Shown here: positions 3,578 through 51,355 of the stretch, one piece after another
Layout: every line of letters starts with the position of its first letter
Position numbering within the stretch: position 1 is the first letter of the stretch
DNA from: Oscillospiraceae bacterium
Lineage (GTDB): Bacteria > Bacillota > Clostridia > Oscillospirales > Oscillospiraceae
Assembly: GCA_017436035.1 (NCBI GenBank)
Contig: JAFSDV010000026.1
Coordinates: 1 to 55,441, forward strand
Length of the DNA: 55,441 bases
Direction of reading: 5' to 3'
Position numbers and translations under genes: made by a program
The notes under the pieces: model-generated
Told to the model about the DNA's origin: nothing
Databases searched by the model: none
Seen by the model: only the letters and a program-made list of their open reading frames with translations

Positions 3578-4306
3578 ATGGTTGTAAATCAAGAATTTTG
3601 CGATATGCACAGCCATCTGCTGCCCGGAATGGATGACGGCTGTAAATCGGTAGAAGAATCTGTTCGTGTGCTTCGGTCCAGTTACGATCAGGGCGTTCGT
3701 CAGATTTTTGCTACGCCCCATTATTATCCTGTGGAAACAGTGGACACTTTTTTGAAGCGGCGGGAGGCGGCAATGCAGGCACTTTCCAAACGGTTAGAGC
3801 AGGTAGAGCTGCCGGTCCCTCAAATTTGCCTGGGTGCAGAAGTAGCCTACCGCCCCGGCATTGGTTATCAGGAAGACCTTGAGAAGCTGTGCCTGGGAAA
3901 ATCCCGGTATATGCTGTTGGAAATGCCATCAAGTCCGTGGAGCGATGAGGTTGTGCGTTCTGTGCGCAATATGTGCAGCACCAAAGGCATTATACCGATC
4001 ATTGCCCATATTGAGCACTGCATGCCTATGCAGTCGCGGGATGTGCTGATGCGGATTTTGGAGCAGGATGTTTTGGTGCAGATGAACGCCGGGTATCTGC
4101 TGCGTTTTTCTTCCCGGGGCAACGGCAGAAGATTGCTGAAAAACGGTGTGGTGCAGCTTTTGGGAACAGACTGCCACAATATGACCAGCCGAAAGCCGAA
4201 TATGGGGCTTGCAATGGCGTATTTGGAGAAAAAAGGAATGACACGCACGGTTCGTGAAATCACGGCCTTAAGCCAGTCCATTTTCCGGGAAGCCTTCGGA
4301 GAATAA
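3578..4306 (+). CDS. CpsB/YwqE-type PHP-family protein-tyrosine phosphatase
   Basis: The 242-residue protein begins with the PHP metal-binding motif DMHSHLLPGMDDG (about residues 9-21). Further metal ligands are in FATPHYYP, AHIEH and LGTDCHN. This pattern is that of the manganese-dependent CpsB/CapC/YwqE phosphatases, which dephosphorylate the bacterial tyrosine kinase of capsule and exopolysaccharide export. Here it stands alone between its own promoter and a terminator, with no capsule kinase or chain-length gene beside it, so its substrate is inferred only from the family. The RBS before ATG 3578 is weak. Confidence 0.85.
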   Translation: MVVNQEFCDMHSHLLPGMDDGCKSVEESVRVLRSSYDQGVRQIFATPHYYPVETVDTFLKRREAAMQALSKRLEQVELPVPQICLGAEVAYRPGIGYQEDLEKLCLGKSRYMLLEMPSSPWSDEVVRSVRNMCSTKGIIPIIAHIEHCMPMQSRDVLMRILEQDVLVQMNAGYLLRFSSRGNGRRLLKNGVVQLLGTDCHNMTSRKPNMGLAMAYLEKKGMTRTVREITALSQSIFREAFGE

Positions 4307-4313
4307 TAGAAAC

Positions 4314-4365
4314 AAAAGCAGATTCTGTACAGCCTGCCGGACAGGCAAACACAGAATCTGCTTTT
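4314..4365. terminator. Bidirectional terminator
   Basis: Arms AAAAGCAGATTCTGT (4314-4328) and its complement (4351-4365) enclose a second small stem. The A run on the left and T run on the right let it serve both the rightward phosphatase gene and the leftward YdcF gene. Confidence 0.88.
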
Positions 4366-4369
4366 GGCT

Positions 4370-5122
4370 TCAGAAGAGAAGGTAGTACCACAGAGCAGCC
4401 ACTTCCCGCAGATAGTAATTCAGCTTCAAGGTCAGTTGGTGCGTTGGAGCGGGAAGCCCCAATGCCTGAACACCACAGTCCTCTGCAACAAGCGAGGCAC
4501 GATAAATGTGATACGCACTGGAGACCAGACCGATTTTAACCGGACGGCAGTTGGTTTTTTCTTCAATCAAGGTCAGAGAATAGCTGAGATTTTCACGGGT
4601 AGAGGTGGAGCGGTCTTCAATCCAGATCCGATTTGGCGAGATACCCATTTTTGTCAGCGTATTATACATACACAGAGCTTCAGAGATCTCTTCGTCCGGT
4701 CCTTGACCGCCGGAGACGATGGCAATGACGTGGGGATGCTCGGACAGGTATTCAAAGGCGGTGTCAATTCGATCCTGCAAGCTGGCGGAGGGGGCTTCAC
4801 CGATCACCCGTGCACCCAAAACGATGATGTATTCCGGTGCCGGTTCTGTAGGAGGACGGGAGGCCTGTAGGATGGGAACAAGGGTAATACCATATAATAT
4901 AGACCCCAAAATAAGAATAGCAGTCAGTAAAGGGATCATAACGCCGGTTGTTTTTGGATGTGTCTTCTTTAAGGAAAACAGCAGGTAGAAGCAGGTTATG
5001 ACAGCGGCGATCCCGCAAAGGAGCACCCCCAAAAAATGATGACCGGATACGAAAAGCCAAAGGTATGCGCCGAACAACAGGAGCAGCACCGGAACGGACC
5101 ATTTCAAAAGCTTTTTAAGCAC
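4370..5122 (-). CDS. YdcF/SanA-family membrane protein (DUF218)
   Basis: The 250-residue protein has three hydrophobic segments in the first 85 residues and then a DUF218 domain: YIIVLGARV, VIAIVSGGQGPDEEISEA, IWIEDRSTSTRENL and LVSSAYHIYRA are the family's motifs. Family members (SanA, ElyC, YdcF) act at the cell envelope, and some affect peptidoglycan or vancomycin tolerance; no reaction is firmly known. The start is GTG at 5122, seven bases after AAGGAGG; the ATG just upstream is out of frame. Confidence 0.85.
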   Translation of the reverse strand: MLKKLLKWSVPVLLLLFGAYLWLFVSGHHFLGVLLCGIAAVITCFYLLFSLKKTHPKTTGVMIPLLTAILILGSILYGITLVPILQASRPPTEPAPEYIIVLGARVIGEAPSASLQDRIDTAFEYLSEHPHVIAIVSGGQGPDEEISEALCMYNTLTKMGISPNRIWIEDRSTSTRENLSYSLTLIEEKTNCRPVKIGLVSSAYHIYRASLVAEDCGVQALGLPAPTHQLTLKLNYYLREVAALWYYLLF

Positions 5123-5165
5123 ACATATTCCTCCTTAAAAAACGGGATTTTCGACGCTTTTCCCC

Positions 5166-5194
5166 ATTATAACACGGAAGGAACATAAAAACAA
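5166..5194 (-). promoter_or_regulatory. Promoter of the YdcF-family gene
   Basis: On the minus strand TTGTTT (5194-5189), a 17-base spacer and TATAAT (5171-5166). The -35 box overlaps the foot of the thrS terminator. Confidence 0.6.
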
Positions 5195-5236
5195 GCACAC
5201 CCTATGTGCGTCCGCACATAGGGTGTGCTTGTTTTT
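5187..5236. terminator. Long bidirectional terminator after thrS
   Basis: Two 24-base arms (5187-5210 and 5213-5236) are perfectly complementary and end in A and T runs. It ends the leftward thrS transcript immediately after the stop codon. Confidence 0.92.
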
Positions 5237-5239
5237 TTG

Positions 5240-7036
5240 TTAGACCTCTTTGCTTTTGGAGGCGATCTCCAGCAAGCATTTGGCAGTAAATTCCTCAGGG
5301 GTCATAGCACCCAGGTCCTCGCCCTTACGGGTTCTTACGGAAACTGTGCCGTTTTCCATATCCCGGTCGCCGATGACCAGCATATAAGGGATCTTTTGCA
5401 GCTGTGCCTCCCGGATCTTGTAGCCCAGCTTTTCACTGCGGCAGTCGGTTTCAGCGTGGATATTCACGGCGTTCAGCTTGGCAGCCAGCTCTTTGGCATA
5501 CTCGTGTGCCCGGTCGGTGATGGGCAGGACCTTGACCTTTGTAGGCATCATCCACAGGGGCAGAGCACCGGCGTATCGCTCAATGAGATATGCCAGCGTC
5601 CGCTCGTAGCAGCCCAGGCTGGTACGGTGGATGATATAAGGGGTCTTTTTCTGACCGTCTGCATCGGTGTATTCCATGCCGAACTTTTGAGCCAGCAGCA
5701 TATCGATCTGAATGGTAACAATGGTATCTTCTTTGCCGAAGACATTCTTGTACTGAATGTCCAGCTTGGGGCCGTAGAAGGCGGCCTCATCGATGCCGAT
5801 GGTGTATTCAACACCCAAATTGTCCAGAATCTGACCCATTACCCGCTGTGCTTCCTCCCACTGCTCAGCAGTGCCTTCGTACTTGATGCCGGCGCGGGCG
5901 GGATCCCACTGGCTGAAGCGGAAGGTGCAGTTTTCCAGCATACCCACAGTATCCAGAACGTACTTAGCCAGCTCCAGACAGCCCCGGAATTCTTCCTCCA
6001 GCTGATCGGGACGCAGTACCAGATGTCCTTCGGAAATGGTAAACTGACGGACGCGGATCAGACCGTGCATCTCACCGGAATCCTCGTTACGGAACAGGGT
6101 AGAGGTTTCACCCAAACGCATGGGCAGATCCCGGTAGGAACGGGCGCGGTTCAGATAGACCTGATACTGGAAGGGGCAGGTCATCGGACGCAGCGCGAAG
6201 CACTCCTTGGTCTCGTCTGTGGGATCACCCAGCACGAACATACCGTCCAGATAATGATCCCAGTGACCGGAGATCTTGTAAAGGTCGGATTTGGCCATTA
6301 GGGGGGTCTTGGTCAGCAGATAACCCCGTTTCTGCTCCTCGTCTTCGATCCAACGCTGCAGGGTCTGGATGACCCGGGCACCCTTGGGCAGCAGAATGGG
6401 CAGACCCTGCCCGATCTCCTCCACAGTGGTGAAAAATTCCAGCTCCCGGCCCAGCTTGTTGTGATCCCGCTTCAGGGCCTCTTCCTGTGCTGTCAGGTAG
6501 GCATCTAACTCATCCTTGCTGGGGAAGCCAATGCCGTAGATCCGCTGCAGCATTTTCCGGTTGGAATCGCCGCGCCAGTAAGCACCGCAGGATTTGGTCA
6601 GCTTAAAGCCGTTGTGACGGAGACGTCCGGTGTGGTCCAAATGGGGACCGGCGCACAGATCGGTAAATTCGCCTTGGGTGTAGAAGCTGATGACCGCGTC
6701 CTCGGGAAGATCCTCTATCAGCTCCTTCTTGTAGGGCTCGTTATTGGCTTCTGCCCAGGCAAGGGCTTCTTCCCGGCTCTTTTCGCTGCGCTCCAGGCGG
6801 ATGCGCTCCTTGACGATCTTCTTCATCTCCCCTTCGATCTGAGAAAGGTGATCAGGGGTAAAGGAGAAGGGTGCGTCAAAGTCGTAGTACCAGCCCTCGT
6901 CGATGGCAGGACCGATTGCAAGCTGCACCTCCGGCCACAGCCGCTTGACAGCCTGCGCCATCACATGAGAGCTGGTGTGCCAAAAGGTCTTGCGGTATTC
7001 AGGATTTTCAAAGGTATACAGATTTTCTTCAGACAT
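5240..7036 (-). CDS. thrS: Threonyl-tRNA synthetase lacking the N-terminal TGS domain
   Basis: The enzyme charges tRNA-Thr with threonine. It has 598 residues rather than about 640. It begins directly with the editing domain (FWHTSSHVMAQAVKRLWP, about residues 13-30; FTDLCAGPHL), then the class II core (ALRPMTCPFQYQVY with the zinc Cys; FRNEDSGEMHGLIRVRQF) and the anticodon-binding domain (VKVLPITDRAHEYA onward). The usual N-terminal TGS domain is absent. The start is ATG 7036 because AAAGGAGGT lies seven bases upstream; a longer in-frame reading would run into the T-box terminator. Expression is controlled by the T-box leader. Confidence 0.95.
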   Translation of the reverse strand: MSEENLYTFENPEYRKTFWHTSSHVMAQAVKRLWPEVQLAIGPAIDEGWYYDFDAPFSFTPDHLSQIEGEMKKIVKERIRLERSEKSREEALAWAEANNEPYKKELIEDLPEDAVISFYTQGEFTDLCAGPHLDHTGRLRHNGFKLTKSCGAYWRGDSNRKMLQRIYGIGFPSKDELDAYLTAQEEALKRDHNKLGRELEFFTTVEEIGQGLPILLPKGARVIQTLQRWIEDEEQKRGYLLTKTPLMAKSDLYKISGHWDHYLDGMFVLGDPTDETKECFALRPMTCPFQYQVYLNRARSYRDLPMRLGETSTLFRNEDSGEMHGLIRVRQFTISEGHLVLRPDQLEEEFRGCLELAKYVLDTVGMLENCTFRFSQWDPARAGIKYEGTAEQWEEAQRVMGQILDNLGVEYTIGIDEAAFYGPKLDIQYKNVFGKEDTIVTIQIDMLLAQKFGMEYTDADGQKKTPYIIHRTSLGCYERTLAYLIERYAGALPLWMMPTKVKVLPITDRAHEYAKELAAKLNAVNIHAETDCRSEKLGYKIREAQLQKIPYMLVIGDRDMENGTVSVRTRKGEDLGAMTPEEFTAKCLLEIASKSKEV

Positions 7037-45313: not shown

Positions 45314-46252
45314 ATGAATTACTTATCTGCAAAAGAAACTGCCTTTAAATGGGGCGTAAATGTTTCATTAGTGAAGCGCTACTGCGCTCAAGGACGAGTG
45401 CCCGGAGTAGCATTCCGAAACGGTGTTTGGCGCATCCCAGAGGATGCAATCCGTCCTATACGGACAGATTTGGAGTATACATCGGAGGTGGAGTTGCCGG
45501 AACTGGCCAAAAAGCTGCAAAATCAGAAGAAAAAGCGGAATTTTCACGGTTTGTACGATTTCACCGTAATTGACCTTACTTACTCTTCTTCCCGGATGGC
45601 AAGCGTTCGCCTGACCCGTCAGCAGGTGGAAACCATCTTCAAAAAGGGCAAGATCCGGGAGGCTTTCGAGCCCTTTAAAGTCTCCGATGTGATCGAGGTG
45701 CTGAACCACATCCATTGTGTGGACTATATCCTTGACCACGTGATGGAGCCTCTATCCCAAAAGTTCATCCGCAAGCTTCACCATATTTTGATGACCGGCA
45801 CGGTGGACGAGTACCGGGAGCAGGTGCGCCCTGGCGAGTACCGGACGGTTACATCCCGTCCCCGAGATCGTCAACTACTGCACCCGGACAAAATCCATTC
45901 CAGTCTGGCAGAGCTGATCGCTGCCTACGAAAAGCAGACCGATATCGAGCGCAATCACATTCTGGACTTCCACGTCCGCTTCGAGGAAATCTTCCCCTTC
46001 GAGGACGGCAATGGCCGCGTGGGCAGATTGCTTATGTTTAAGGAATGCCTGCGCCACAATGTGATGCCCTTCATCATCGACGATAAACGCCGTTCCCGCT
46101 ACCTTCGTGGTATCAAGGAATGGCACGACGACCGCTACGAACTGGTGGACGTGGTAATGGAAGCCCAAGACCGCTTCGAAGCCCAAATTGAACTCCAAAA
46201 GCTCTACGCCCACAGCCGTCTCTACCTACCTGCAGGCTATACGGAGGACTGA
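45314..46252 (+). CDS. Fic-fold protein with N-terminal HTH and altered active site
   Basis: The 312-residue protein begins with an excisionase/MerR-like helix-turn-helix (about 1-48, YLSAKETAFKWGVNVSLVKR with a wing GVWRIPEDA) and then has a Fido domain (about 85-280). The Fic motif reads HVRFEEIFPFEDGNGRVGR: Phe227 stands where the catalytic His of HPF should be. The usual inhibitory motif (S/T)xxxE(G/N) reads SSRMASV, so its Glu is Ala96. The protein probably does not AMPylate targets; a DNA-binding regulatory role is more likely. GAGG lies a few bases before ATG 45314. The small helical protein follows after three bases. Confidence 0.85.
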   Translation: MNYLSAKETAFKWGVNVSLVKRYCAQGRVPGVAFRNGVWRIPEDAIRPIRTDLEYTSEVELPELAKKLQNQKKKRNFHGLYDFTVIDLTYSSSRMASVRLTRQQVETIFKKGKIREAFEPFKVSDVIEVLNHIHCVDYILDHVMEPLSQKFIRKLHHILMTGTVDEYREQVRPGEYRTVTSRPRDRQLLHPDKIHSSLAELIAAYEKQTDIERNHILDFHVRFEEIFPFEDGNGRVGRLLMFKECLRHNVMPFIIDDKRRSRYLRGIKEWHDDRYELVDVVMEAQDRFEAQIELQKLYAHSRLYLPAGYTED

Positions 46253-46255
46253 GCT

Positions 46256-46519
46256 ATGGATATGAAGAAACTCTGCACCGATGCCGATACCGTCTTGGAG
46301 CTGCTGTACAACACCTATTACGAGCACGTGTGCACCGACGATACCGACGAGATCAAACAGGCCTTTGACGACCTCTATAACGCCCTGTCCGATAAAACCC
46401 TCAAAGAAAAGGACACTATTATCGACCTTGTCTGTAACCTCTGCCGCCTGCACCAACAATCCGGCTTCATCGCCGCCCTCAAACTCGCCCACCGCCTCTC
46501 CCACGAACTAAATATCTAA
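46256..46519 (+). CDS. Small acidic helical protein of unknown function
   Basis: The 87-residue protein is almost wholly alpha-helical by composition: DADTVLELLYNTYYEHV, then a helix through TDEIKQAFDDLYNALS and a C-terminal FIAALKLAHRLSHELN. I do not recognise a characterised family, though DUF6809-type proteins have a similar look. It starts three bases after the Fic-fold gene and ends at a hairpin, so it is probably its partner. The last 70 bases and the hairpin occur again, decayed, at 50267-50391. Confidence 0.75.
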   Translation: MDMKKLCTDADTVLELLYNTYYEHVCTDDTDEIKQAFDDLYNALSDKTLKEKDTIIDLVCNLCRLHQQSGFIAALKLAHRLSHELNI

Positions 46520-46566
46520 CTCTCCCAACGCAAAGGGCCGCCCATTCCGGGCGGCCCTGATTCTAA
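46452..46566 (+). repeat. Direct repeat copy A (gene tail plus terminator)
   Basis: These bases, covering the end of the small helical gene and its hairpin, match 50267-50391 in the same orientation at roughly 80% identity by eye, including CAACGCAAAGGGCCGCCC-like and CCGGCTTCATCG blocks. The two copies bracket the XRE/ASCH/HNH operon. Confidence 0.75.
46534..46558 (+). terminator. Hairpin after the Fic-fold gene pair
   Basis: A perfect 10-bp stem AGGGCCGCCC/GGGCGGCCCT with an ATTCC loop; the T run after it is weak. Confidence 0.72.
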
Positions 46567-46680
46567 ATGCGATATTGCTTGGAGTACTACTTGTCATATG
46601 GCAAGTAGTAAAATTGTCTGGATCCAATGACTTACCATAAATAAACTCTCTTCAAATTTGGTGTTCTAATTTAAAGGATG

Positions 46681-46709
46681 TTGACATAATGCAAATATTT
46701 TGTTATAAT
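46681..46709 (+). promoter_or_regulatory. Consensus promoter of the XRE-ASCH-HNH operon
   Basis: TTGACA (46681-46686), 17 bases, TATAAT (46704-46709): a perfect sigma-A consensus. Confidence 0.87.
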
Positions 46710-46734
46710 GTTCTATGTAATATAACATAGAACA
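46709..46734. promoter_or_regulatory. Palindromic operator over the transcription start
   Basis: TGTTCTATGT (46709-46718) and its exact complement (46725-46734) flank AATATA. The 10-bp perfect palindrome covers the expected start of transcription and probably binds the XRE regulator encoded 14 bases downstream. Confidence 0.75.
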
Positions 46735-46747
46735 AGGGGGGCGAAAA

Positions 46748-47131
46748 ATGCCGAAAAAGAACTTTGATAGTAAGCAAGAGCAGAAGCAACAACTAGGTGC
46801 AATGCTGGCTCTTTGCCGTGGCGAAAGAAGTCTGCGCGAAATCGCTAGGGCAATCGAAATCCCTGCGTCAAATCTCAGCTATATTGAAAAAGGCATCAAC
46901 GCTCCTAGTCCGGAAGTGTATGAGAAAATTATTTTAGAGTTAGCACCTTCCGATGAAAAGCGACAAGAAATGGATGCTTTATATAGTTGCATTAGAGACC
47001 TACCTCCACCTGACATATGCGAAATACTTATTACTAACAACGGACTCAACAATTCGCTGCGGTTACTGGGAAATAAACAAATTTCTAATGATATGCTTAT
47101 GCAAATCAACAAATTGTTTGCATCGTTTTGA
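46748..47131 (+). CDS. XRE-family transcriptional regulator of the ASCH-HNH cassette
   Basis: The 127-residue protein has an HTH_3 domain (about 15-65): LGAMLALCRGERSLREIARA, then the recognition region IPASNLSYIEKG. The C-terminal 60 residues are helical and unrecognised. AAGGGGGGCG precedes ATG 46748. A strong promoter and a 10-bp palindrome precede it, the layout of an autorepressed cassette as seen in many defence and toxin-antitoxin loci. The fusion protein gene follows after 15 bases. Confidence 0.88.
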   Translation: MPKKNFDSKQEQKQQLGAMLALCRGERSLREIARAIEIPASNLSYIEKGINAPSPEVYEKIILELAPSDEKRQEMDALYSCIRDLPPPDICEILITNNGLNNSLRLLGNKQISNDMLMQINKLFASF

Positions 47132-47146
47132 TAGAGGAGCAATAAC

Positions 47147-49009
47147 ATGAAAACATATTACCTGAAAATTAGAGATAAATTCATAGGCGAAATCAAGGCA
47201 GGAAATAAAAAACATGAATATAGATTAGCGTCACCAGAAAGAACGCAGATCAAAGTGGGGGATACTTTGGTGTTGGTTTCTAATCAAAATAGATCTGTGT
47301 TCGTAAAAACCACCGTAAAGGGCATAAGAATTTTCCCTGGATGGAAAGAAGCACTTGAAGATAATTGGAAACAGGATTTTCAGAATTTGTATTCTACGAT
47401 TGATGAAGCGTTGAAAGAGTGCTATAAGTTTTATCCCAAAGACGAAGTTGATACCTATGGTATTATTGTCTATGAAATTGAACCACTTAAAACGGACATT
47501 TTGCAATCCAGTATCCTTATTGACACTAATATCATAATCAAAAGGGAAAGCAGCAATAATGCAACCTTTGAAATTGCCAGCTTGTTTAATTGGTTTGCTA
47601 AAAAAAGCTCTGCGATTTTTGTTCATGAGTGTTCCAGAGAGGAACTTTCAAACCACCGTGATGAAGCGGTAAAAAACAATATGCTTACAAAACTGAAGTC
47701 ATATAACACCTTGCCGGTGTTTGCGCATCAGCCGGACCCTTATTTTGAAGCGGTGACATCTCAGTATGCAAAAGATCAAAACGGTATTATTGACAATGCT
47801 TTGTTGCGCGAGGTATACGATGGTAATGTCGGTATACTTTTGACGGATGACAACCTTATTCTAAGAAAGGCACAGGAGCTATATATACGGGATAGGGTTC
47901 TTACTTCGGCGGAACTTTTGTCATGGTTTGAAAGCTGTGATCCCAAAAATATTGAATATAAAATGTTGGCCGTTACGTTGAGTGAATTTGGCGATGTTGA
48001 TTTGAATTCTTCGTTTTTTGATACACTAAGAGAGGATTACGAAGGGATTGCTTTCGATAATTGGTTCAAGAAGAAAGCTCGCAACAAAGAAAAGGCATAT
48101 ATATTCAAAAATGAATCAGGACTGTTACAAGGTTTTTTATACCTAAAAGATGAGTACGAGGATGAACCTGACTATCTAAAAGTAACACCACCTCTTACAC
48201 CTAAGCGGAGAATGAAGGTAGGAACTTTTAAAATTGAGCAAACAGGCTTCCGGCTTGGCGAACGCTTCTTAAAAATTATTTTTGATAATGCAAGAAGCCG
48301 CAAGGTTGACGAAATCTATGTCACCTTGTTTGAAAACAAGCGCGAAGAGGTCAAAAGGTTAAAGTCGTTGATGGAAGAATGGGGATTCCACAAACATGGC
48401 TATAAACCGAATGGTGAACTTGTCCTTGTAAAAACAATGGAACTATATGATTCTAGCGAAAGCCCTAAATTTAACTATCCACTTCTCAAAGCAGCACCTG
48501 ATTGTTATTTTCTTCCAATATATGCCCAGTATCATACAGACCTTTTTCCCGATATGATATTAAAAAACGAGGACATGCATCTGTACGAAGACAAAAAGGC
48601 TCATCGATATGCGTTAGAAAAAATCTATCTTTCTGGTTCTTTTAACGCACCTGCCAATCCGGGAGACTTGTTCGTAATATACAGGATAGCGGATCAAGGG
48701 TATAAAAAGTATTCTTCTGTTGTAACTGGTATTGCCATTATCGAAAGCATTACCAAAACTAAAACTGCAGATGAGTGTGTAGCTATATGTAAAAATCGCT
48801 CTGTATTCACGGAAGAAGAAATCAGAGAAATGCATAAAACTCGCCCAATCGTTATTAAGCTACTCGATTATATGCCCTTTACGACAAAAGTTACTTTGGA
48901 TCAACTACGAGCAAACGGAATAGTAGCAAAAAATGCCGGACCGCGACAATTTGATCAGATATCTAAGGAACAATTTGAAATTATGTACAGATTAGGAACG
49001 GAGGGGTGA
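47147..49009 (+). CDS. ASCH-PIN-GNAT-PUA-like four-domain fusion protein
   Basis: 620 residues. Domain 1 (about 1-112) is ASCH/PUA-like: YYLKIRDKFIGEIKAGNKKHEYR, VGDTLVLVS. Domain 2 (about 121-262) is a PIN nuclease: SSILIDTN (Asp126), FVHECSREEL (Glu161 or Glu165), IIDNALL (Asp216) and LLTDDN (Asp234). Domain 3 (about 305-432) looks like a GNAT acetyltransferase: VGTFKIEQTGFRLGERFLKI and MEEWGFHKHGYK. Domain 4 (about 465-615) is again PUA/ASCH-like, with GDLFVIYRIADQGYKKYSSV. PUA-type folds bind RNA or modified bases and PIN domains cut RNA; the whole is not a protein I know by name. RBS GAGGAG at 47132-47137. Confidence 0.75.
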   Translation: MKTYYLKIRDKFIGEIKAGNKKHEYRLASPERTQIKVGDTLVLVSNQNRSVFVKTTVKGIRIFPGWKEALEDNWKQDFQNLYSTIDEALKECYKFYPKDEVDTYGIIVYEIEPLKTDILQSSILIDTNIIIKRESSNNATFEIASLFNWFAKKSSAIFVHECSREELSNHRDEAVKNNMLTKLKSYNTLPVFAHQPDPYFEAVTSQYAKDQNGIIDNALLREVYDGNVGILLTDDNLILRKAQELYIRDRVLTSAELLSWFESCDPKNIEYKMLAVTLSEFGDVDLNSSFFDTLREDYEGIAFDNWFKKKARNKEKAYIFKNESGLLQGFLYLKDEYEDEPDYLKVTPPLTPKRRMKVGTFKIEQTGFRLGERFLKIIFDNARSRKVDEIYVTLFENKREEVKRLKSLMEEWGFHKHGYKPNGELVLVKTMELYDSSESPKFNYPLLKAAPDCYFLPIYAQYHTDLFPDMILKNEDMHLYEDKKAHRYALEKIYLSGSFNAPANPGDLFVIYRIADQGYKKYSSVVTGIAIIESITKTKTADECVAICKNRSVFTEEEIREMHKTRPIVIKLLDYMPFTTKVTLDQLRANGIVAKNAGPRQFDQISKEQFEIMYRLGTEG

Positions 49010-49014
49010 GTGAA

Positions 49015-49386
49015 ATGAAACGAAAAATACTTATATCCATAAATCCTGAACACGTTCAAAATATTATTGCAGGGATAAAAAAATACGAGTATCGCAAAAT
49101 CGCTGCTAAGCAAGATATCTCATCTATAATAATTTACGAAACGACTCCTATAAAACGAATTGTAGCAGAAGCCGAAATTATTGATGTATTAGAACTGCCC
49201 CCTGAGGAACTTTGGGAACAGACGAAAAATGAGTCGGGTATAAGTAAAGCATTCTTCGACAGATACTTCGACAATAGGACAATAGCCTTTGCATATAAAT
49301 TAGGTGAGATAAAAGTATACGATAAACCAAAGACATTGATGGATTACGGCATTAAAGTTGCACCACAGTCATTTGTATATGTTTGA
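49015..49386 (+). CDS. ASCH-domain protein
   Basis: The 123-residue protein is a single ASCH domain: ILISINPEHVQNIIAGIKKYEYR, IIIYETTPIKRIVAEAEI, ELWEQTKNESGISKAFFDRYF and VYDKPKTLMDYGI. The ASCH fold is PUA-related and predicted to bind RNA; this subgroup often lies beside GNAT and nuclease genes. The start ATG 49015 follows GGAGGGG; an in-frame GTG 49006 overlaps the preceding stop and is less likely. It shares fold and probable origin with domain 1 of the fusion protein. Confidence 0.85.
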   Translation: MKRKILISINPEHVQNIIAGIKKYEYRKIAAKQDISSIIIYETTPIKRIVAEAEIIDVLELPPEELWEQTKNESGISKAFFDRYFDNRTIAFAYKLGEIKVYDKPKTLMDYGIKVAPQSFVYV

Positions 49387-49388
49387 CT

Positions 49389-50204
49389 ATGAGATGTATT
49401 TTCTGTGAAAAGGATTCTTCGTCATCAAGAAGTGTAGAACATATTGTCCCAGCGTCGTTTGGCAATTCTATTTCGATTTTGCCCAAAGGTATTGTGTGCG
49501 ATAAATGTAATAATTATTTTGCACGAAAAATCGAATCTCCTTTTCTTAATTCAGAAGTGGTCCTTCAATTGAGACAAGAACTTAAGATAAATAACCGAGA
49601 GGGAAAAACGGTTAATAGATTTGACGACTTGCCAACCAAAAACATAATGCAAATTTCTCAAGATTTACATATTGTCATGTCTCAAGAAGAGAAAACAGAG
49701 GAAGAAGTAGCGCAAACTGTATTGAAGTATCAACAATACCTCAAAAGAACGGACGAATTGCTCATAAAACTTGATTATAATTTGTCCCGACTTCTAGCTA
49801 AAATGGCGGTGGAAGCTTTTGTGCATAAGTGTCTTGATGATATGAGTGTAATTGATTACATTATTGAAGACGAGGCATTTAAAAAGATTCGGCAATATGT
49901 TCGTTATGGTGGAAATTACATTTGGGAGTACAATGCTCGGAGAATATATGCACGTAACGAAGCGTATCAAGGTGATATTACAACGCACATCAATTATGAA
50001 TTTGATTTTCTATTTACTTCTCAAGGAAAGGCATATTTTATAATTGTTCTGTACGGTATTGAGTATGTTATCAATATAATTGATAACACAATAGCGGATT
50101 ATGCTGAATGGCTAAAAGATAATCACTATATAAGCCCTTTATATATATCACCTGGACAGCGACAAAAAGAATTTGAAGGATATACAAATTTTTATGCAAA
50201 GTAA
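49389..50204 (+). CDS. HNH endonuclease-family protein
   Basis: The 271-residue protein starts with the HNH/zinc motif CIFCEKDSSSSRSVEHIVPA (about 3-24) and the second zinc pair in GIVCDKCNNYFARKIE (about 37-50): two CxxC knuckles around EHIVP. This is the HNH architecture of DNA nucleases in restriction and defence systems. The remaining 200 residues are unrecognised and may recognise the target. It starts two bases after the ASCH stop with no RBS of its own, implying coupling. An in-frame TTG at 49383 is an alternative start. Confidence 0.8.
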   Translation: MRCIFCEKDSSSSRSVEHIVPASFGNSISILPKGIVCDKCNNYFARKIESPFLNSEVVLQLRQELKINNREGKTVNRFDDLPTKNIMQISQDLHIVMSQEEKTEEEVAQTVLKYQQYLKRTDELLIKLDYNLSRLLAKMAVEAFVHKCLDDMSVIDYIIEDEAFKKIRQYVRYGGNYIWEYNARRIYARNEAYQGDITTHINYEFDFLFTSQGKAYFIIVLYGIEYVINIIDNTIADYAEWLKDNHYISPLYISPGQRQKEFEGYTNFYAK

Positions 50205-50266
50205 AATGGACTATCCCAAACTGCTTTTAAAGTAATGGAAAAAAGAGCAATGACCTTTGTAGCTTC

Positions 50267-50391
50267 CACCAATAATCCGGCTTCATCGACACCCTCAAAC
50301 TCGCCTACCGGCTTTCCCCCGAACGAAACACCTAACCCTAACGCAAAGGGCCGCCCGGTCACCCCGGACGGCCCTTTGATAGGTGCGATTT
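50267..50391 (+). pseudogene. Decayed second copy of the small helical gene tail and terminator (repeat copy B)
   Basis: Same orientation and order as 46452-46566. In the original frame it has an in-frame stop (CAC CAA TAA where copy A reads CAC CAA CAA), and no start is present, so it is not functional. Its hairpin (AGGGCCG... with GGCCCTTT) may now serve the leftward gene that ends at 50390. Confidence 0.72.
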
Positions 50392-51355
50392 AATTATCTT
50401 GCTCATCTTCTTCTAAGCTATCTTCGTCTTCGGGGAAAAATATGTTTTGAGCCCCGATGATAGATATTGCATCTTTTCTGTCATTTATTTCACTGCGAGA
50501 CATATCTTCATATATTGTCGCAACTTCGTCCACAAGGCTTTGCGGAATGTTTCTGTTCATAATGTCGACAAGATACTCTTGCACCATAAAAGGATCAAAG
50601 GGCAGAGGTTTAATTTTGCGCAAGTAGTTGAAATAGCCGGTTGAATCAGTTGTTGTACACAGATATAGAATCAGTTCGGCAAGAGCATTGCGTTCACTTT
50701 CGTGCACTGCTTGTAAAGAGCTCTTTGGAAATAAATTTAAAAACACTTTTTCGGCAGGAGAGTCGACGCGTAATTCATACGTGTAAAGGTTTTCTTCTCG
50801 TGCTTTATCTTTTATTAGTTCATAGTAATAGCAAAGAAGTTTGCCGAGGGTACGGCCAATTCGCTCTTTAGCCTGCTCTGTAATATAAGTATCGTGACTA
50901 AAAATTGAAGTCTCAACCAATGCAGGATCATAATGCTTTTTTACATAACTTTCAAATTCAGCCTTATAATCAAAATTTGTGTTTATGGAGAAATTGGAAT
51001 AGCGTCCTTGTTCATAAAAATTCTTTAAAAGATCTAGCAAGGCATTTTGTTCTTCTGATAGTTTCTTTTTAGTATGAAGATTAATCTTACTTTGAAGAGC
51101 AGGTTGGGAGTGAATTTTAAGTTCAAGTGCGAAAGCATCAATATCGGACAAATCGTAACTGCCATACAAAAACAGAACACACTTTTGGATTCTTTCAATG
51201 CTTACTGCAGCATTGTAAAGAAACATAAAAATCTGATCGTTTTGATAGATATTTCTCTCGTTGTTCAGAATAGTTAACGCATTGTATGCAAATGTTCCCG
51301 CGAGGTCGATTTCCTGTCCAATATTGAAGTTTTTAAAATATTGTAAGGTATTCAA
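50390..51355 (-). CDS. Unknown helical protein, probably accessory
   Basis: The 321-residue acidic protein looks all-helical. An N-terminal segment (about 25-65) reads ILNNERNIYQNDQIFMFLYN and SIERIQKCVLFLYGSYD, a pattern that recalls HEPN-type helical bundles, but no clear HEPN Rx4-6H motif is present. The C-terminus is highly acidic (EDEDSLEEDEQDN). I do not recognise the family. The start is TTG 51355, eight to nine bases after AAAGGAG. It is AT-rich like its neighbours. Confidence 0.6.
   Translation of the reverse strand: MNTLQYFKNFNIGQEIDLAGTFAYNALTILNNERNIYQNDQIFMFLYNAAVSIERIQKCVLFLYGSYDLSDIDAFALELKIHSQPALQSKINLHTKKKLSEEQNALLDLLKNFYEQGRYSNFSINTNFDYKAEFESYVKKHYDPALVETSIFSHDTYITEQAKERIGRTLGKLLCYYYELIKDKAREENLYTYELRVDSPAEKVFLNLFPKSSLQAVHESERNALAELILYLCTTTDSTGYFNYLRKIKPLPFDPFMVQEYLVDIMNRNIPQSLVDEVATIYEDMSRSEINDRKDAISIIGAQNIFFPEDEDSLEEDEQDN

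What the first reader, a model, noticed from the sequence alone, without database searches (positions are those of the whole stretch)
46681..50204. Candidate undescribed system: XRE regulator, ASCH-PIN-GNAT-PUA-like fusion, ASCH protein and HNH nuclease in one operon
Four AT-rich genes are read together from a consensus promoter with a 10-bp palindrome at its start. Gene spacing is 15, 5 and 2 bases. The contents (autorepressor, two PUA-type base- or RNA-binding proteins, a PIN RNase, an acetyltransferase and an HNH nuclease) are parts typical of conflict systems, but I know of no named system with this set. The PUA-type domains could recognise modified bases or tRNA and direct the PIN and HNH nucleases. 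The defence role is inference.
Basis: partly seen in the sequence, partly recalled or inferred. Interest (0 to 1): 0.85.

Follow-up and report, generated by a model that had tools for sequence, protein, structure and literature searches.

The report
Mobile predicted toxin-antitoxin cassette with HNH
Four bacterial genes travel together as one mobile cassette; its core is an already predicted but, as far as could be searched here, untested type of toxin-antitoxin or anti-phage system, and the new part is an extra nucleic-acid-binding domain and an HNH nuclease that has been joined to such cores in distantly related bacteria.

Summary
In detail: four genes, spacings 15, 5 and 2 bases, perfect consensus promoter and palindrome. 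The core is not undescribed. The 620-aa fusion and the ASCH protein match PADLOC candidate PDC-M11A/B (E 1e-154, 7e-40) and the (PIN)-GNAT-EVE + ASCH toxin-antitoxin prediction of Bell et al. 2020 (PMC7641849, passages); a coliphage record names homologues GevT toxin/GevA antitoxin. New here: (1) 46678-50214 is a discrete cassette, 86% identical in four other Clostridia MAGs with unrelated flanks, all four genes under purifying selection. (2) An extra N-terminal ASCH domain, in 8 of 29 PIN-bearing proteins aligned. (3) A recurrent HNH partner: 26 of 80 genome loci of this HNH family carry an EVE-type fusion plus ASCH on the same strand, in six phyla, once as an ASCH-HNH fusion (L220). Against: HNH is in only 1 of 14 PIN-GNAT-EVE loci found without it. 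Most likely an anti-phage toxin-antitoxin module with an HNH add-on; no function was tested. New variant of a known kind.

The parts
46681..46709 (+). sigma-70 consensus promoter TTGACA-17-TATAAT
   Evidence: 12 of 12; TTGACA invariant in the 7 loci aligned
46709..46734 (.). 10-bp palindrome right behind the -10, candidate operator of the XRE protein
   Evidence: (z -6.4); the role as operator is inferred
46748..47131 (+). XRE-type HTH regulator, 127 aa
   Evidence: HTH_31, HTH_3; homologue at the same place in 6 of 7 relatives L147-L153, not L150
47147..49009 (+). 620-aa ASCH-PIN-GNAT-EVE fusion (PDC-M11A); PIN residues D126, E166, D216, D235
47147..47506 (+). extra N-terminal ASCH domain; in the window and L147-L153 only, 8 of 29 PIN-bearing proteins aligned
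   Evidence: (E 7.9e-08)
49015..49386 (+). ASCH protein, 123 aa (PDC-M11B, GevA homologue), putative antitoxin
49389..50204 (+). HNH_5 nuclease, 271 aa, with a roughly 200-aa C-terminal part without a PDB match
   Evidence: (C3, C6, H18 60 of 61; C37, C40, N41 61 of 61)
46678..50214 (+). whole mobile cassette: the block shared with L147, L148, L149, L153 while both flanks differ
50253..50375 (.). partial copy (79%) of 46437-46558 (3' end of a gene with a weak DUF6809 match and the inverted repeat behind it); the cassette lies between the two copies

Best explanation
A horizontally moving, probably autoregulated toxin-antitoxin-type anti-phage cassette of the (PIN)-GNAT-EVE/ASCH (PDC-M11, 'GevAT') family, in a variant so far seen in Clostridia. 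Inferred working: the XRE protein sits on the palindrome and keeps expression low; the small ASCH protein holds the ASCH-PIN-GNAT-EVE toxin inactive; infection, or a phage-modified nucleic acid read by the EVE/ASCH pockets, releases it, and the PIN RNase and the GNAT-like domain shut down translation. The HNH protein is an added DNA-directed effector that works with the ASCH protein. Shown here: gene set, family membership, conserved PIN and HNH catalytic-type residues, cassette mobility, purifying selection, recurrent HNH association. Inferred: toxicity, inhibition by ASCH, trigger, target, phage protection.
For: PADLOC PDC-M11A/B. Bell et al. predict a toxin-antitoxin role and name ASCH partners, AAA_17, type I RM and prophage contexts (passages). 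A GNAT-EVE/ASCH pair lies directly downstream of cI in lambdoid phage PhiR47_2 and is named GevT toxin/GevA antitoxin in the record; window proteins are 35% and 39% identical to them. ASCH beside the fusion in 13 of 14 PIN-GNAT-EVE loci and 92 of 94 GNAT-EVE loci, many of the latter near-identical prophages. PIN D126 28 of 29, D216 and D235 29 of 29, E166 E in 24 and D in 5; HNH C3, C6, H18 60 of 61, C37, C40, N41 61 of 61. Cassette edges agree in five genomes with unrelated flanks (in L148 the alignment ends 20 bases before the HNH stop). An rve-type transposase, TnpV or a serine recombinase is near it in L147, L148 and L153 (10 neighbours picked). dN/dS 0.04-0.11 for the four genes, 0.03-0.08 for each domain of the fusion, 10 pairs. 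HNH with fusion and ASCH in 26 of 80 genome loci, all 26 on the HNH strand, HNH last in 16 and first in 10, some with overlapping reading frames (L161, L172, L184, L190). The label needs 14 changes on the HNH tree, at least 9 forced by starred branches. ASCH-HNH fusion in L220.
Against: HNH is missing from 13 of 14 PIN-GNAT-EVE loci found without it and from 94 of 94 GNAT-EVE loci (L006-L008 and L120-L129 hold only 1.5 kb of flank). In the two plasmid records that have both genes close together, they are on opposite strands (hit tables; not fetched). HNH relatives without the fusion sit beside other defence genes in the cases scanned, so part of the association may be island clustering. The GNAT acetyl-CoA loop lacks the usual first glycine (R there in the window, K or R in most relatives shown; motif recalled), so acetyl transfer is uncertain. 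No structure could be predicted. No experimental paper was found in the held library (preprints are not held).
Confidence: 0.6

Rival explanations
1. A type IV-like (modification-dependent) restriction system: ASCH/EVE domains read modified bases in phage DNA and deliver the HNH nuclease to it; the PIN/GNAT part is a back-up toxin.
For: ASCH-HNH fusion in L220; ASCH directly before HNH in the window and L147-L153; the EVE-HNH enzyme VcaM4I acts on 5mC/5hmC DNA with the PUA-superfamily + HNH plan (PMC7897488, abstract and outline); in L152 the HNH gene overlaps an hsdM-hsdS-hsdR operon by 4 bases, and hsdR-hsdM follow in L150.
Against: Reader and nuclease are separate proteins here; the small ASCH is nearest to the ssRNA-cutting ZmASCH, whose Y47, T49, K53 and R32 are matched; most PIN-GNAT-EVE loci have no HNH.
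Confidence: 0.25
2. An addiction module that keeps a mobile cassette in the genome and has no role in phage defence.
For: Discrete mobile cassette; toxin/antitoxin naming in a record; relatives on phages, plasmids and IMG/VR contigs.
Against: Stabilisation alone does not explain recurrent HNH or type I RM partners or the place directly after cI in a phage, which in lambda is held by the rex exclusion genes (recalled).
Confidence: 0.15
3. HNH is only a neighbour from the defence island; the functional unit is the XRE-fusion-ASCH trio.
For: HNH without a fusion found in 54 of 80 genome loci; among neighbours picked for scanning there are SduA (L191), PDC-M19 (L195), PDC-S15 (L217), PDC-S21 (L176) and HsdR (L178); opposite strands in two plasmids; HNH in 1 of 14.
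Against: 26 of 26 genome loci same strand, overlapping frames, ASCH-HNH fusion, cassette edge at or just behind the HNH stop codon in five genomes, dN/dS 0.11.
Confidence: 0.15

Closest known systems
PDC-M11 (PADLOC-DB 2.0.0 phage defence candidate)
   Same: M11A covers residues 123-616 of the fusion (E 1.2e-154), M11B the small ASCH protein (E 6.6e-40)
   Different: the window adds an N-terminal ASCH domain, an XRE gene and an HNH gene; PDC-M11 is a candidate, and the name is in no paper of the held library
(PIN)-GNAT-EVE + ASCH toxin-antitoxin class, Bell et al. 2020 (PMC7641849, passages seen)
   Same: domain order PIN-GNAT-EVE, ASCH gene next door; type I RM beside the cassette in relatives L150 and L152
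   Different: no AAA_17 gene in the window; extra ASCH, separate XRE, HNH. HNH occurs once in that text, for EVE-HNH fusions, not for this operon
GevT/GevA of Escherichia phage PhiR47_2 (PV340567.1)
   Same: GNAT-EVE and ASCH homologous, 35% and 39% identical, same gene order
   Different: no PIN, no N-terminal ASCH, no HNH, phage-borne; the names are from the record only (no paper found)
EVE-HNH modification-dependent endonuclease VcaM4I (PMC7897488, abstract and outline)
   Same: PUA-superfamily reader combined with an HNH nuclease
   Different: one polypeptide there, separate proteins here; the HNH sequences were not compared
ZmASCH ssRNA ribonuclease (PDB 5GUQ and others; PMC5615036, passages and one section)
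   Same: the only PDB relatives of the small ASCH protein at E <= 1 (best 7e-06); ZmASCH Y47, T49, K53, R32 match Y41, T43, K47, R27 (alignment printed for the L153 homologue; window residues)
   Different: alignment stops before S128; activity of the window protein unknown

Membership tests
PDC-M11 (PADLOC) | M11A-type PIN-GNAT-EVE protein | tested here: met
   E 1.2e-154
PDC-M11 (PADLOC) | M11B-type ASCH protein encoded beside it | tested here: met
   E 6.6e-40, 5 bases downstream
PDC-M11 (PADLOC) | phage protection | not testable with these tools
   needs plating assays
(PIN)-GNAT-EVE toxin-antitoxin (Bell et al. 2020) | fusion of PIN, GNAT-like and EVE domains | tested here: met
   GNAT and EVE at family level only
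(PIN)-GNAT-EVE toxin-antitoxin (Bell et al. 2020) | AAA_17 ATPase in the operon (often, not always) | tested here: not met
   an XRE gene is in that place in the window; AAA_17 present in relatives such as L114/L165, and by a home-made profile in L115 and L161
(PIN)-GNAT-EVE toxin-antitoxin (Bell et al. 2020) | toxin neutralised by the ASCH partner | not testable with these tools
   only record names GevT/GevA
modification-dependent EVE-HNH restriction enzymes | reader domain and HNH in one polypeptide | tested here: not met
   separate genes in the window; an ASCH-HNH polypeptide was seen only in L220
YqfB-type ASCH amidohydrolase (ac4C deacetylase) | catalytic Lys21, Thr24, Arg26 in GxKxx[ETS]xR | tested here: not met
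   Lys and Arg kept, Thr24 is Glu in both ASCH domains (P0002 K21, E24, R26; P0003 K22, E25, R27; read); YqfB residues from passages of PMC9599836; Glu74 not compared
classical GNAT toxins (TacT/AtaT type, recalled) | acetyl-CoA loop Q/R-x-x-G-x-G/A (recalled) | tested here: not met
   window TGFRLGE: R where the first glycine is expected; a divergent loop could still bind
ZmASCH ssRNase | binding/nucleolytic residues Y47, K53, S128 | tested here: inconclusive
   Y47 and K53 matched; S128 outside the alignment

The most novel reading that the evidence does not exclude
The small ASCH protein is a shared switch for two effectors: it restrains the RNA-directed ASCH-PIN-GNAT-EVE toxin and steers the HNH nuclease to (modified) phage DNA, so that one infection signal triggers attack on RNA and DNA at once. 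The HNH is a portable DNA module added independently to PIN-GNAT-EVE/ASCH systems in several phyla.
Probability: 0.25. Interest if true: 0.75.

Novelty: new variant of a known kind. Interest (0 to 1): 0.5.

Why it matters
The (PIN)-GNAT-EVE/ASCH class was predicted in 2020, occurs in prophages, plasmids and islands, and no experimental account of it was found in the library searched here (no preprints held). The HNH association and the ASCH-HNH fusion give a concrete lead on what the ASCH protein does, and a 3.5-kb naturally mobile cassette with its own consensus promoter is a convenient unit to test in a laboratory strain.

Tried and rejected
ASCH as an acetyl-cytidine eraser reversing the GNAT domain: attractive because E. 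coli YqfB is an ASCH amidohydrolase, but the catalytic Thr is Glu in both window ASCH domains. A two-gene unit of HNH with the convergent 321-aa neighbour: suggested by L026, where a 273-aa gene follows HNH; the likeness is one 38-residue stretch (E 2e-4 in a pairwise test with composition correction off), and the 321-aa protein hits nothing else in the loci held at that point at E < 0.5; dropped. Duplicates merged before the count of 14: L005 and L115 are one locus, L117 and L258 another, L108, L114 and L165 lie on one contig; L259 was left out because no PIN match was found in its split frames. Single-sequence scan of viral contigs with the fusion found nothing; the alignment did (134 relatives, best 80 kept). 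Flanking genes in genus mates were uninformative (2 of 21 and 17 of 21 genomes with a match). Profile search of the HNH family against PDB gave nothing credible. tRNA genes: none in the window. On the HNH tree 8 of 84 loci were left out as partial, fused or duplicate (L190, L215, L216, L219, L220, L222, L224, L227). Papers: the IbfA paper (PMC12111858, passages) proved unrelated; of the 7 papers holding HNH, ASCH domain and defense all were looked into by passages or outline and none of the passages shown describes this HNH with (PIN)-GNAT-EVE. Searches listed only the top 20 and 15 of many matches, so they are not used as evidence of absence.
Full report
OBSERVATION. The four reading frames, spacings (15, 5, 2 bases), consensus promoter (46681-46709, 12 of 12) and 10-bp palindrome are as described. 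GC is 35-37% in 47-50 kb and still 38% in the next 2 kb, against 44-58% before 47 kb. Pfam sees HTH, ASCH and HNH_5 above cut-off; PIN is weak and GNAT/EVE are invisible in the window protein alone. They appear at family level: of the 59 members of alignment A5 (four of them lone ASCH proteins) 9 match Acetyltransf_1, 8 EVE, 10 PIN_3 at E <= 0.05, and the family profile finds NAA50 in PDB at E 0.0018.

WHAT IT IS. PADLOC identifies the fusion as PDC-M11A and the small ASCH protein as PDC-M11B. Bell et al. 2020 (PMC7641849; passages) describe (PIN)-GNAT-EVE proteins with an ASCH partner, often an AAA_17 ATPase, as predicted toxin-antitoxin systems, PIN-bearing ones near type I RM and other defence genes, PIN-less ones in prophages. 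The phage PhiR47_2 record calls a GNAT-EVE/ASCH pair GevT toxin and GevA antitoxin; it lies directly downstream of cI in the same direction. Identities to the window are 35% and 39%. That pair is in 274 of 5426 complete E. coli genomes at 99% identity or more. A whole-word search for GevT and related names (9 papers, all listed, none about this pair) and a search for (PIN)-GNAT-EVE, GNAT-PUA, PDC-M11 and ASCH antitoxin (only Bell et al.) found no experimental paper; preprints are not held.

PARTNERS. In loci not found through HNH, the M11B-type ASCH is beside 92 of 94 GNAT-EVE genes, many from near-identical prophages, and beside 13 of 14 distinct PIN-GNAT-EVE genes, the 14th being cut by its contig end. 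Only one of the 14 (L114) has the HNH gene, and none of the 94. From the other side, one genome scan with an HNH alignment gave 83 relatives, 80 kept. Of these 80, 20 have a GNAT-EVE match in the stretch held (up to 8 kb each side). One of the 20 (L160) and 6 more have a second fusion type of 685-738 aa: Pfam finds an N-terminal GNAT in 7 of 7 and a PIN in 4 of 7, and PADLOC M11A profiles match the C-terminal part in the 3 of 7 scanned. Together 26 of 80, each with an ASCH match; 0 of 4 viral loci. All 26 are on the HNH strand; HNH stands last in 16 (as in the window) and first in 10, sometimes with overlapping frames (L161, L172, L184, L190; frames start at the first possible start codon). 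In L197 two other frames lie between. They come from Bacillota 11, Bacteroidota 7, Pseudomonadota 5 and one each of Spirochaetota, Acidobacteriota and Thermodesulfobacteriota. On a tree of 78 HNH sequences the association needs 14 changes, at least 9 on starred branches. L220 encodes an ASCH-HNH fusion right after PIN-GNAT-EVE. As a base rate, among 398 genomes of the phylum 2 have a full-length HNH match (7 any match) and 3 a full-length PIN-GNAT-EVE (28 any match); both HNH genomes, the window's and G658, have the two side by side. Against: two plasmid records carry both genes close together but on opposite strands, and HNH relatives elsewhere neighbour SduA, PDC-M19, PDC-S15, PDC-S21 or HsdR in the cases scanned.

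THE WINDOW'S OWN VARIANT. The N-terminal ASCH is found in the window and L147-L153 only, 8 of 29 PIN-bearing proteins aligned; these 8 HNH genes form one clade (97*). The XRE gene stands where several relatives have AAA_17; it is present in 6 of the 7. DNA similarity to L147, L148, L149 and L153 (85.6-86.1%) begins at 46678-46680 and ends at 50184-50214 with unrelated flanks on both sides: a mobile cassette. A transposase, TnpV or a serine recombinase is near it in L147, L148 and L153. In L152 the HNH gene overlaps hsdM by 4 bases, followed by hsdS and hsdR, and L150 has hsdR and hsdM behind it. In the window it lies between the end of a gene with a weak DUF6809 match and a 79% partial copy of that end. 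Mean dN/dS over 10 pairs: XRE 0.048, fusion 0.058, ASCH 0.043, HNH 0.108; within the fusion N-ASCH 0.031, PIN 0.081, GNAT 0.032, EVE 0.081.

HOW IT MAY WORK. PIN residues D126 (28 of 29), D216 and D235 (29 of 29), E166 (E 24, D 5) and HNH C3, C6, H18 (60 of 61), C37, C40, N41 (61 of 61) are conserved, so both nucleases are probably active (their catalytic roles are recalled). The GNAT loop lacks the first glycine of the usual motif (recalled), so this domain may bind rather than transfer; it is nevertheless one of the two most constrained domains. The small ASCH is nearest to ZmASCH, an ssRNA-cutting protein, and matches its Y47, T49, K53 and R32; an ac4C-eraser role like YqfB is unlikely because the catalytic Thr is replaced. 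I commit to an anti-phage toxin-antitoxin module: ASCH restrains the fusion, infection frees it, PIN/GNAT act on RNA, and HNH adds a DNA attack linked to ASCH. Everything after gene content, conservation and mobility is inference.

VERDICT. Observation confirmed. 'Undescribed' is wrong for the core; for the HNH partner, the double ASCH and the cassette no description was found in the searches made here (with passages of all 7 papers). New variant of a known kind that is untested as far as these searches reach.

Noticed in passing
window 45314-46252 (+): Fic-domain gene with an N-terminal HTH_17 match, PADLOC candidate PDC-S04 (E 4e-75), directly upstream of the DUF6809-like gene and the cassette.
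   Followed up: no
window 50390-51355 (-): 321-aa protein convergent with HNH; no match better than E 0.03 in Pfam, NCBIfam, PADLOC or PHROGs.
   Followed up: partly
window 46437-46558 and 50253-50375: The cassette lies between two 79% copies of a gene end plus the inverted repeat behind it; only these two copies in the held genome (62% complete); possible clue to how cassettes enter this site.
   Followed up: partly
L160, L166, L183, L198, L199, L206, L212: Second fusion type with an N-terminal GNAT, a PIN (Pfam match in 4 of 7) and an M11A/EVE-like end (3 of 3 scanned), with ASCH and HNH.
   Followed up: partly
L184:6940-8001, L177:4805-5833, L190:104-622: Unknown related proteins (354, 342 and a 172-aa piece) inside PIN-GNAT-EVE/HNH loci, with hydrophobic stretches near the C-terminus by eye; no Pfam or PADLOC match for the L184 one.
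   Followed up: no
L157:6339-8810: HNH relative behind a weakly viperin-like radical-SAM protein (pVip E 1e-5) and a VakA-like kinase (E 3e-8); related genes on the other strand in L158 and L171.
   Followed up: no
L195, L201, L202, L208, L225: HNH relative directly after genes clustering with PDC-M19A/B (L195 scanned) in Muricauda/Allomuricauda.
   Followed up: no
L004 (psiM100; locus 4016-5494 and 5472-5861): PIN-GNAT-EVE (ORFD) beside ASCH (ORF5) in an archaeal virus; ORFD is mostly inside the annotated insert IFa, while ORF5 is noted as shared with psiM2.
   Followed up: no
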